A stretch of DNA of 64,000 nt from Mycolicibacterium goodii (GTDB taxonomy: Bacteria > Actinomycetota > Actinomycetes > Mycobacteriales > Mycobacteriaceae). The first letter of the stretch is position 1, and each line of letters begins with the position of its first letter. The notes below the pieces were generated by a model. The model was not told where the DNA came from. It was given only the letters and a program-made list of their open reading frames with translations, and ran no database searches. Shown here one piece after another: positions 20,608-22,871 of the stretch. The stretch is from the NCBI RefSeq assembly GCF_001187505.1, contig NZ_CP012150.1, forward strand, positions 5,428,048-5,492,047, in the 5' to 3' direction. The translations under genes were made by a program, and so were the position numbers.

Positions 20608-22002
20608 TCAGAACGAGGCGTCGTCGCCGCGTGACCGGTTGATCGGCAACCGCAGCAGCAGGCGCGCACCACCGAGCGGGCTCTCCTCCAAAGCCGCGGA
20701 GCCGCCGTGCAATTCGGCTTGCTGCGCGACCAGCGCCAGGCCAAGGCCAGATCCGGAGCGCGAGGCCGTCGAACCCCGCGCGAACCGTTCGAACACCTCG
20801 GCACGTTCGGCCTCGGGCACGCCGGATCCGTTGTCGTCAACCGCGATCTCGACGTCGTCGGCCGAACTGACCGCACTCAGACGGATCTCGGTGGCGCCAC
20901 CGTGTTTGACCGCGTTGGCGATCGCGTTGTCGATCACCAGACGCAACCCCGCAGGCATGCCGAGCATGAGCACCGTCGGCGACGGCATGAGCGTGACCTT
21001 CAGACGCGGATAGGTGTGCTGCGCGTCGTGCGCGGCGCGGTCGAGCAGTTCGGTGACGTCCATCGGCACAAAGTCCTCGACGGTGGTCAGTTCCCCCTGC
21101 GCGAGGCGTTCGAGCGCGGTGAGGGTGGCCTCGATGCGGCTCTGGGTCCGCATGACGTCGCCGATCACCTCCTGGCGCTGCTCGGGTGTCATGTCCAGCG
21201 TCGAGAGCACCTCCAGGTTGGTGCGCATCGCCGTCAACGGTGTCCGCAGTTCGTGCGAGGCGACCGCGGCGAAGTCACGCGCGGATTCCAGTGCGGCCTT
21301 GGTGCGCTCCTGCTCGCTGCCGATGCGGGCCAGCATCCCCTCGACCGCCTCGGCGATCTCGACGGCCTCGCGCACGCCGCGCACCTTCACCTCTTCGGGG
21401 TTCGATTGGGCGTTGATGGCGCGGGCCTGCTGGGCCAGCAGCCGGAAGGGGTTGATCATCACCAGCGAGATGACCCAGCCGACCACCACGGTGCCCGCGA
21501 TGACGCCGGCGCAGATCAGCACCACGCGCAGATGCAGTTCGTCGATGCGCCGCTGCGTCTCGGCCAGCGGCGCGCCCAGCGCGATCGTCGCGGGCCCCGC
21601 GGTGAACGTCCGCACCCGGTATTCGACGCCGTCGATCGTGGTGTTGGCGTATCCGTTCTCCAGGTGCGGCAGCACGATGTCGCTGGGCACCGAGACGGTG
21701 ACGCCGCCGATGTACGCGGTGCGCACCAAACCGCCGTCGTCGGGCCCGGCGTCGGCGTCCTCCTCGCGGGTGCTGTTGAGCAGCGTGCTGACATCGCCCA
21801 GGCTGCTCAGCGAATCGAGCCGCCGGTCCAGCTGGGCGTACTGGTCGTTGGTGACGCCGATCCACACCCAGGTGCCCAGCGTCAGCACCAGCACCACCAC
21901 GGACAGCGCGGCGACGATGACGATCGTGCGCAACGACAGCACCCGCGCCACCGGCCGCAGCACGGGCCGGAGCAGGCCGATCATGCGCTCTTCGAAAGTC
22001 AC
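20608..22002 (-). CDS. Orphan sensor histidine kinase, PrrB-like
   Basis: The 464-aa membrane kinase has a first membrane segment (about residues 27-49), an extracytoplasmic sensor of about 110 residues, and a second segment (VVLICAGVIAGTVVVGWVISLVMI). A HAMP domain and HisKA box follow (FAAVASHELRTPLTAMRTNLEVL, phospho-acceptor His in SHELR). The ATPase domain has N box NAIANAVKHGG, G1 VDDNGSGVPE and G2 GSGLGLALVAQQAELHGG. No response regulator is adjacent on either side. M. smegmatis is reported to carry an orphan PrrB-type kinase, and this fits it. Its stop is 1 bp from the ArsR-family stop. Confidence 0.9.
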   Translation of the reverse strand: MTFEERMIGLLRPVLRPVARVLSLRTIVIVAALSVVVLVLTLGTWVWIGVTNDQYAQLDRRLDSLSSLGDVSTLLNSTREEDADAGPDDGGLVRTAYIGGVTVSVPSDIVLPHLENGYANTTIDGVEYRVRTFTAGPATIALGAPLAETQRRIDELHLRVVLICAGVIAGTVVVGWVISLVMINPFRLLAQQARAINAQSNPEEVKVRGVREAVEIAEAVEGMLARIGSEQERTKAALESARDFAAVASHELRTPLTAMRTNLEVLSTLDMTPEQRQEVIGDVMRTQSRIEATLTALERLAQGELTTVEDFVPMDVTELLDRAAHDAQHTYPRLKVTLMPSPTVLMLGMPAGLRLVIDNAIANAVKHGGATEIRLSAVSSADDVEIAVDDNGSGVPEAERAEVFERFARGSTASRSGSGLGLALVAQQAELHGGSAALEESPLGGARLLLRLPINRSRGDDASF

Positions 22003-22055
22003 GGCGCTATCTTGCCTGATCCGCCGGGCGGCCCTGCGCCCCCGATCGCAGGATC

Positions 22056-22100
22056 GTCAACCCAAGGTTGACGCATGGTAATCGTCAACCTATCGTTGAC
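22056..22100 (+). promoter_or_regulatory. clpC2 promoter with twin palindromic operators
   Basis: Two 17-bp palindromes with GTCAAC/GTTGAC arms occupy 22056-22072 (GTCAACCCAAGGTTGAC) and 22084-22100 (GTCAACCTATCGTTGAC), 28 bp apart centre to centre. The first overlaps a -35 TTGACG (22068-22073). The second contains a -10 TATCGT (22091-22096) at 17-bp spacing. The ATG at 22104 would be leaderless. Binding at either site should block RNA polymerase. ClpC2 itself has a helix-turn-helix, so autorepression is likely. Confidence 0.75.
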
Positions 22101-22103
22101 GGC

Positions 22104-22871
22104 ATGGTCGAACCCGCCAAGATCACCAATCCCGTCCGCCTCGACGACCTCATCGCCGCCATCAAGCACGCACACACCGAACCGCTCGAACAACTCACCG
22201 ACGCCGTCATCGCCGCCGACGCCCTCGGCGAGATCGCCGACCACCTGATCGGCCACTTCGTCGACCAGGCCCGGCGCTCGGGCGCGTCGTGGACCGAGAT
22301 CGGCAAGTGCATGGGCGTCACCAAACAGGCCGCCCAGAAGCGCTTCGTCCCCAAAGTGCCGGACTTCGACCCGACTGGACTCGACCCCGAGGCCGGGTTC
22401 GGCCGGTTCACGCCGCGTGCCCGCAACGTCGTCGTCGTCGCGCACAACCTCGCACATGACGCCGGAAACGCCGAGATCACGCCCGATCACCTGCTTCTGG
22501 GCCTGTTCGCCGACCCCGAGGGCCTGGCCGCCAAACTGCTGGCCGGTCAGGGCGTCGACGCCGACGCGGTGCGCGCCGCGGTGACGCTGCCGCCGTCGAC
22601 CGGCGAGAGCGCCGCGCTGATCCCGTTCAACACCGCAGCCAAGAAGGCGCTCGAACTCACCTTCCGGCAGGCACTTCGCCTGGGCCACAACTACATCGGC
22701 ACCGAACACATCTTGCTGGCACTCGCCGAAGCCGAGGACGGCAGCGCGGGCGGGCCGCTGCACCGACTCGGGGTGGACGCCGAACGCTTCGAAGCCGACC
22801 TACGTGCCGCGCTGGAACCGTTCATGGCCAAGCCCGCATCGGAACCGCCGCCGCAGGTGAGCGGGGAATGA
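22104..22871 (+). CDS. clpC2: ClpC2, Clp N-domain protein with helix-turn-helix
   Basis: The 255-aa protein lacks AAA+ modules. An N-terminal segment contains a helix-turn-helix (GASWTEIGKCMGVTKQAAQKR, about residues 60-80). A Clp_N double repeat like that of ClpC1 follows (RFTPRARNVVVVAHNLAHDAGNAEITPDHLLLGLF and ALRLGHNYIGTEHILLALAEAEDG). Mycobacterial ClpC2 is reported to bind cyclomarin-type antibiotics through this domain, act as a decoy for ClpC1, and control its own expression. The twin palindromes over the promoter support autoregulation. ATG at 22104 is chosen because the upstream alternative at 22068 falls in the operator. Confidence 0.93.
   Translation: MVEPAKITNPVRLDDLIAAIKHAHTEPLEQLTDAVIAADALGEIADHLIGHFVDQARRSGASWTEIGKCMGVTKQAAQKRFVPKVPDFDPTGLDPEAGFGRFTPRARNVVVVAHNLAHDAGNAEITPDHLLLGLFADPEGLAAKLLAGQGVDADAVRAAVTLPPSTGESAALIPFNTAAKKALELTFRQALRLGHNYIGTEHILLALAEAEDGSAGGPLHRLGVDAERFEADLRAALEPFMAKPASEPPPQVSGE

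What the first reader, a model, noticed from the sequence alone, without database searches (positions are those of the whole stretch)
22056..22106. Twin palindromes exactly cover the -35 and -10 of a leaderless clpC2 promoter
GTCAACC-N3-GGTTGAC (22056-22072) and GTCAACC-N4-GTTGAC (22084-22100) are separated by 28 bp centre to centre, close to 2.7 helical turns. The first overlaps TTGACG and the second contains TATCGT; these are 17 bp apart, and the ATG follows 7 bases after the -10. ClpC2 has a helix-turn-helix before its Clp N-domain. This gives a concrete model for antibiotic-responsive autorepression in which the decoy protein leaves its own promoter when the Clp-domain ligand binds.
Basis: partly seen in the sequence, partly recalled or inferred. 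Interest (0 to 1): 0.75.

Follow-up and report, generated by a model that had tools for sequence, protein, structure and literature searches.

The report
Known self-repressing clpC2 promoter, HTH-read
Two DNA palindromes sit exactly on the start signal of the mycobacterial gene clpC2, a known self-switching antibiotic-sponge gene; comparing many related genomes suggests that a small DNA-binding piece at the front of the protein, and not its antibiotic-binding domain, reads them.

Summary
The operator, its overlap with -35/-10, the inferred leaderless start, ClpC2 autorepression and relief by cyclomarin were published in 2023 (Taylor et al., PMC10030653), so the finding as written is already known. 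What remained open is which part of ClpC2 reads the DNA. My comparative evidence favours the HTH. (1) The solved N-terminal chain 8ADA ends at residue 72, just before the predicted recognition helix. (2) The same genome carries a split version, a 69-aa HTH gene followed by a separate Clp_N gene, with the same twin operator. (3) Of 79 twin-palindrome loci, 74 have this HTH in the adjacent gene or operon (72 of 77 without the own two). (4) Of 60 further HTH homologues, 50 have the palindrome (at most 1 mismatch) upstream, against 0 of 60 downstream. (5) The HTH keeps the palindrome where no Clp_N gene was detected (21 loci), and HTH core residues are 40/40 conserved in fused proteins, against 31 and 32 of 40 for the two C-terminal arginines.

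The parts
22055..22073 (.). Distal operator palindrome CGTCAACCCAAGGTTGACG; its right half carries the -35
   Evidence: conserved layout
22083..22101 (.). Proximal operator palindrome CGTCAACCTATCGTTGACG; its centre carries the -10
   Evidence: TA in the proximal spacer in 26 of 26 fused and 35 of 37 stand-alone loci, in the distal spacer in 3 of 26 and 7 of 37
22068..22073 (+). -35 hexamer TTGACG
22091..22096 (+). -10 hexamer TATCGT
22104..22871 (+). clpC2 (255 aa); start codon 2 nt after the proximal palindrome; leaderless start inferred, transcription start not measured here
   Evidence: PMC10030653 suggests a leaderless transcript
22287..22346 (+). Helix-turn-helix SWTEIGKCMGVTKQAAQKRF (residues 62-81)
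   Evidence: profile comparison with the stand-alone HTH family: probability 94.9, E 4.3e-8; below the Pfam cut-offs on its own
22320..22346 (+). Predicted recognition helix TKQAAQKRF (residues 73-81); absent from the solved N-terminal chain 8ADA, which ends at residue 72, and from the C-terminal construct 94-252
   Evidence: no ClpC2 chain's list matches residues 73-89
22398..22823 (+). Clp_N (ClpC1-like ligand-binding) domain, about residues 99-240
20608..22002 (-). Divergent sensor histidine kinase gene; shares the 101-bp intergenic region that holds the operator

Best explanation
The two palindromes are the clpC2 operator-promoter. A ClpC2 dimer sits on each: the distal site covers the -35, the proximal site covers the -10 and the start of a leaderless mRNA, so bound ClpC2 shuts its own gene off. 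When cyclomarin (or a natural ligand) fills the C-terminal Clp_N domain, DNA binding weakens and ClpC2 rises to act as a decoy for ClpC1 ligands. These steps are published (the leaderless start there too is inferred). My addition, inferred from comparison: base reading is done by the N-terminal HTH, with residues 73-81 as recognition helix; half-site centres 11-12 bp apart would put two recognition helices in successive major grooves of one face. The Clp_N domain is the sensor that changes HTH-dimer geometry; it may add backbone contacts, which would fit the R185A/R189A result. In the split version (HTH gene plus separate Clp_N gene, also present in this genome) the same signal would have to pass between two proteins.
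For: Published binding, autorepression and CymA relief: PMC10030653. HTH as reader: (a) 8ADA, described as the N-terminal domain, stops at V72, before the predicted recognition helix. (b) In the same genome the HTH is a separate 69-aa gene (Pfam HTH_23 above cut-off) in front of a Clp_N gene, with twin sites GTCAAGTTTGGTTGAC/GTCAAGTTATGTTGAC ending 3 bp before its ATG; AlphaFold model of this HTH: helices 15-42, 47-54, 58-65, mean pLDDT 83.7. (c) Twin pattern in 74 of 396 Actinomycetota genomes, reversed control 0 in every row; of 79 loci examined (77 fetched, 2 own) 71 have an adjacent HTH ORF, 1 more in the other orientation (L139), 2 more have the HTH as second gene (L070, L106). Start codon 2-4 bp after the twin in 66 of 71, in 15 families. 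(d) Reverse test: 50 of 60 other HTH places have the palindrome (at most 1 mismatch) in 600 bp upstream, 0 of 60 downstream; with at most 2 mismatches 59 against 8 of 60. (e) 21 loci with HTH and palindrome but no Clp_N detected. (f) In 40 fused proteins S62, W63, I66, G67, G71, Q75 and R57 are 40/40; R188 31/40, R192 32/40; both are lost in L114, L178, L179, L188, L189, which keep palindromes. (g) Spacer length changes twice on a tree of 122 HTHs, architecture 7 times.
Against: R185A/R189A weakens DNA binding in EMSA and derepresses 2.0-fold in vivo, so the C-terminal domain matters. Pfam does not call an HTH in ClpC2 itself. The homologous antitoxin RelI uses this region to bind a toxin, and its authors found no evidence of DNA binding and no inverted repeats upstream (PMC13284704). 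The link between spacer length and fusion rests on very few events (2 independent pairs, not testable), and the tree has 52 columns and mostly weak forks. L199 has the HTH and no palindrome. With 2 mismatches allowed the downstream control is 8 of 60, so the weakest sites are soft. Adjacency shows association, not contact. The model of full-length ClpC2 failed and could not be repeated.
Confidence: 0.85

Rival explanations
1. As published: the C-terminal Clp_N domain reads the operator through the helix with R185/R189 (here R188/R192), and cyclomarin blocks DNA directly or by reshaping that domain; the N-terminal domain only dimerises.
For: Double mutant weaker in EMSA and 2.0-fold derepressed in vivo; conserved positive surface beside the CymA site. 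R188 and R192 invariant in the 40-row alignment of close homologues (A4).
Against: Palindromes accompany the HTH where Clp_N is a separate gene or not detected. R188/R192 are lost together in 5 of 40 fused proteins that keep the palindrome (a sixth, L186, is cut off there). In this genome ClpC1 keeps the first arginine but has Q at the second, and the split Clp_N protein has R and A (sequences, aligned by eye); [quoted passage not shown] The C-terminal construct alone lacks the HTH; its EMSA was cited as support for the need of dimers in high-affinity binding. In vivo effect of the double mutant 2.0-fold against 263-fold induction by CymA.
Confidence: 0.1
2. Composite reader: the HTH gives base specificity and the C-terminal arginines add essential backbone contacts, so that ligand binding in the C-terminal domain removes part of the DNA interface.
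For: Reconciles the mutant EMSA with the comparative data. This is a refinement of the best explanation, not wholly exclusive of it.
Against: The stand-alone HTH proteins have no such domain in the same chain; the arginines are not conserved in all fused proteins.
Confidence: 0.3
3. The palindromes are sites of an unrelated regulator, or a promoter coincidence.
For: TTGAC is itself a -35-like word, so a promoter alone explains part of the sequence.
Against: ClpC2 binds this operator in EMSA and repression is lost in the clpC2 deletion strain; both palindromes recur with diverged spacers in 15 families.
Confidence: 0.02

Closest known systems
ClpC2 autorepressor and operator clpC2o (Taylor et al. 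2023, PMC10030653; M. smegmatis MSMEG_2792, M. tuberculosis Rv2667)
   Same: Same gene, same operator CGTCAAC-n5-GTTGACG 1-2 nt before the ORF, repeated upstream, overlapping -35/-10, inferred leaderless, ligand-relieved
   Different: Nothing in the DNA. I differ only on which domain reads the DNA; the paper's main text does not use the term helix-turn-helix. Its supplements were not read.
RelI antitoxin (PDB 9SDC; PMC13284704)
   Same: Homologous HTH region (E 1.5e-11 with the family profile); its authors report 99% HHpred probability of partial similarity to ClpC2 within an HTH region and suggest that some RelI homologues emerged from ClpC2
   Different: RelI binds the toxin RelS; no DNA binding or inverted repeat reported there
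ClpC3 (small mycobacterial Clp protein, induced together with ClpC2 by Clp targeting; PMC10864484 and PMC10746685, passages)
   Same: Probably the Clp_N protein of the split operon in this genome, which carries the same twin operator
   Different: HTH encoded as a separate upstream gene, operator spacer 6 instead of 7. The identification with ClpC3 is my inference; the original ClpC3 paper (Hoi 2023) is not held

Membership tests
ClpC2 autorepressor/operator (Taylor 2023) | CGTCAAC-n5-GTTGACG 1-2 nt upstream of the clpC2 ORF | tested here: met
   22083-22101, ATG at 22104, 2 nt between
ClpC2 autorepressor/operator (Taylor 2023) | Second copy upstream; both overlap -35 and -10 | tested here: met
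   22055-22073; promoter scan
ClpC2 autorepressor/operator (Taylor 2023) | Protein with a ClpC1-like N-domain and no AAA+ modules | tested here: met
   255 aa, Clp_N the only Pfam match above cut-off
ClpC2 autorepressor/operator (Taylor 2023) | Arginines R188/R192 and D46/R57 present | tested here: met
ClpC2 autorepressor/operator (Taylor 2023) | ClpC2 binds the site and cyclomarin releases it | not testable with these tools
   shown in the paper with operator probes in vitro and in M. smegmatis cells; not tested for this genome
Helix-turn-helix DNA-binding domain (Pfam HTH models) | ClpC2 N-terminal region scores above a curated Pfam HTH cut-off | tested here: not met
   only Myb_DNA-bind_8 at 14.9 bits against 27
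HTH family of the split HTH/Clp_N operon | Profile homology to the stand-alone HTH (itself HTH_23, 27.7 bits against cut-off 24.6) | tested here: met
   hhalign probability 94.9, E 4.3e-8; Pfam for P0122
HTH family of the split HTH/Clp_N operon | GTCAA-N6/7-TTGAC palindrome at its own promoter | tested here: met
RelI-type antitoxin | Adjacent RelS/BrnT-like toxin gene | tested here: not met
   the two neighbours scanned are a histidine kinase and a PNPOx-like protein

The most novel reading that the evidence does not exclude
ClpC2 is one branch of an Actinomycetota-wide family of small autorepressors whose HTH reads GTCAA-N6/7-TTGAC sites, mostly as twins embedded in a leaderless promoter. The HTH is fused to a Clp_N decoy (N7), encoded just before a separate Clp_N decoy (N6), or paired with other genes (ABC-transporter membrane protein, GNAT acetyltransferase, small membrane protein), and in Nocardia the same twin also precedes an FAD monooxygenase. 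The 1-bp spacer difference could keep the fused and split paralogues of one cell from reading each other's operator (11 of 11 genomes with both).
Probability: 0.75. Interest if true: 0.6.

Novelty: already known. Interest (0 to 1): 0.45.

Why it matters
The operator itself is known. It would also mean that the antibiotic-sponge response has a second, split copy in the same cell, probably ClpC3, under a matching operator, and that the same switch may drive exporters, acetyltransferases and, in Nocardia, a monooxygenase. That gives a sequence rule (HTH plus GTCAA twin) for finding genes under this kind of control, and a clean two-protein system for separating sensing from DNA reading.

Tried and rejected
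Rejected: chance or bare promoter. Rejected: helical phasing as the reason for the 28-bp distance; promoter spacing explains it. Rejected as a strict rule: I-G against I-A in the first HTH helix predicting spacer 7 or 6 (fails for L145, L183, L184, L193). Not testable: spacer against fusion as independent events (2 pairs). Looked for more sites in the own genome: single GTCAA-N6/7-TTGAC sites 8 against 9 control, of which 4 make up the two twins. The third exact GTCAAC-N5-GTTGAC site in the genome (L014) lies inside a 696-aa open frame and was dropped. PADLOC: no match for either protein. Of the 79 twin loci, L115 and L122 look like chance.

Limits of sampling: one search's list of places was cut, and I fetched one region for each of 77 listed places outside the own genome. 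One search's list was cut too; I fetched 60 listed places not already covered and skipped several listed ones, among them about six from family f4 and the lower-scoring tail. The pattern fixes the letters GTCAA and TTGAC, so their invariance is by construction; spacer, TA content, start distance and neighbouring gene are not. The reverse-test profile A3 was built from the two own HTHs and 12 HTHs next to twins, so it leans towards such HTHs. 'No Clp_N' means not found by my own small profile in the stretch fetched; L198 has a weak match (E 0.0069). L130 lacks the motif used for trimming and is not in the tree, nor are the 10 HTHs without a palindrome of at most 1 mismatch. L120 was classed fused because its frame runs on past an HTH of the stand-alone type; it is an exception there and treated as split. 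Family codes were entered by hand in the script.

Full report
Observation. These are the only two exact copies in the 7.1-Mb genome. TTGACG (22068-22073) and TATCGT (22091-22096) are 17 bp apart, 7 nt before the ATG at 22104; a promoter scan of 301 bp finds this site alone. The gene encodes 255 aa with a Clp_N domain.

What is known. Taylor et al. 2023 (PMC10030653; I saw the abstract, sections 7, 11 and 13, and passages of others; no supplements) report the same operator formula, its repeat upstream, the overlap with -35/-10, the inferred leaderless start, EMSA binding by ClpC2, loss of repression in the deletion strain, and relief by cyclomarin A. Later work repeats this (PMC12913811, passages). 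So the finding is rediscovery. The paper places DNA contact in the C-terminal domain: R185A/R189A weakens EMSA and gives 2.0-fold derepression, and R57A (dimer mutant) gives 4.6-fold. Its N-terminal structure 8ADA covers residues 4-72 because of proteolysis in the drop, and its C-terminal structure covers 94-252. A 2026 paper on the RelI antitoxin (PMC13284704, abstract and passages) notes that RelI resembles an HTH region of ClpC2, but reports no evidence of DNA binding by RelI.

A split paralogue in the same genome. Searching the genome with ClpC2 gives two long frames (849 and 878 aa, taken as ClpC1 and ClpB from recall) and one further small Clp_N gene. In front of the latter lies a separate 69-aa gene homologous to the ClpC2 HTH (hhalign probability 94.9; Pfam HTH_23 above cut-off). 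Its own promoter has twin sites, GTCAAGTTTGGTTGAC and GTCAAGTTATGTTGAC, 27 bp apart, the second ending 3 bp before the ATG. The half-sites are the same and the spacer is one base shorter. By elimination the Clp_N gene is probably ClpC3, described as induced along with ClpC2 (passages); the original paper is not held.

Forward test. The twin pattern, allowing spacers of 6 or 7, occurs in 74 of 396 Actinomycetota genomes; the reversed control shows 0 in every row. I took 77 listed places and the two own loci. In 71 of 79 an ORF with this HTH starts next to the twin, 2-4 bp after it in 66 of 71, in 15 families. Of the 8 others, L139 has the HTH and a Clp_N gene in the other orientation. L070 and L106 have a small membrane-protein-like gene and then an HTH gene. 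L090 has an alpha/beta-hydrolase gene, L091 and L092 an FAD monooxygenase gene. L115 and L122 look like chance. That makes 74 of 79, or 72 of 77 without the own two. The HTH profile used here (from A2) was built from ClpC2 and stand-alone HTH sequences, without reference to palindromes.

Architecture and spacer. Among the 71, of 27 ORFs classed as fused HTH-Clp_N, 26 have spacer 7 at both sites (the exception, L120, is a stand-alone-type HTH whose frame runs on); 43 of 44 stand-alone HTHs have spacer 6 at the distal site, 37 of them at both, and one (L065) has 7 at both. Of the 44, 38 have a Clp_N domain within 300 bp, 6 do not; in 11 of 11 genomes with both kinds the fused one has 7 and the split one 6. 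On a tree of 122 HTHs the spacer changes twice and the architecture 7 times; the counts are split/6 61, fused/7 40, none/7 12, none/6 9. Spacer therefore follows HTH lineage, but the fused/7 link rests on very few events and cannot be tested as independent pairs; the tree has 52 columns and many weak forks.

Reverse test. The HTH profile A3 finds 125 of the same 396 genomes. Of 60 listed HTH places not yet covered, 50 have at least one palindrome (at most 1 mismatch) within 600 bp upstream, 0 of 60 in 600 bp downstream. Allowing 2 mismatches gives 59 upstream and 8 downstream. The nine gained have sites such as AGCAAC...GTTGAC or GTTGCT close to the start; of the ten, 9 have one upstream and 2 downstream in 600 bp; L199 has none upstream.

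Residues. In 40 fused proteins S62, W63, I66, G67, G71, Q75 and R57 are invariant; R188 is R in 31 and R192 in 32; L114, L178, L179, L188 and L189 lack both and keep palindromes, and L186 is cut off there. The AlphaFold model of the stand-alone HTH has mean pLDDT 83.7, with helices 47-54 and 58-65 where the HTH is expected; the full ClpC2 model failed and could not be repeated.

Promoter embedding. The proximal spacer contains TA in 26 of 26 fused and 35 of 37 stand-alone loci, the distal in 3 of 26 and 7 of 37. The right half of the distal site serves as -35; -35/-10 spacing is 17 or 18 in most, and -10 to start codon 6 or 7 nt in most. The distance between the two operators is thus set by the promoter.

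Regulon. In Nocardia carnea and N. flavorosea, 4 of 4 loci of the monooxygenase found in genome contigs carry twin spacer-7 sites 65 to 132 bp upstream of the aligned start (L201 is 100% identical and probably the record behind L091). G050, the genome of L091, also has a fused ClpC2-type protein (L088). Function of the monooxygenase is unknown.

Mechanism. Shown by others: operator binding, autorepression, ligand relief. Shown here: association and conservation. Inferred: the HTH reads the half-sites; the Clp_N domain senses. How a ligand in Clp_N frees the HTH is not known. In split operons it would need a protein contact. Eight searches of the held library (listings) showed no statement of the HTH-operator link beyond the two papers above; I opened only 7 papers, and subscription papers are mostly missing from that library.

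Noticed in passing
L027 1483-1695 (minus strand), own genome G000:C1 about 4522.6-4523.5 kb: Split paralogue: 69-aa HTH gene followed by a separate Clp_N gene, with its own twin operator (spacer 6).
   Followed up: yes
L091, L092, L201-L204: Nocardia FAD-monooxygenase gene with ClpC2-type twin operators upstream (genus named for L201-L204 only); L092 also has a PEP-utilising-domain gene on the other side.
   Followed up: partly
L065 and L182: HTH of this family directly before a GNAT acetyltransferase gene, with twin spacer-7 sites (one half-site mismatch in L182); looks like a toxin-antitoxin-style pair.
   Followed up: partly
L066, L067, L069: HTH with twin spacer-6 sites followed by an ABC-transporter membrane protein gene (Pfam for L066 and L069; L067 by eye), no Clp_N gene seen.
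   Followed up: partly
L161, L162, L166, L167, L168, L172, L177, L180: A variant half-site (xGCAA instead of GTCAA) next to the start codon of HTH genes of this family.
   Followed up: no
L239, L259, L274, L280: Viral contigs with a twin palindrome and an HTH of this family within 700 bp.
   Followed up: no
22003-22103: The operator lies in a 101-bp gap shared with a divergent histidine kinase gene, which ClpC2 binding could also affect.
   Followed up: no
L090: Twin spacer-6 sites 3 bp before an alpha/beta-hydrolase gene, no HTH found in the stretch.
   Followed up: no
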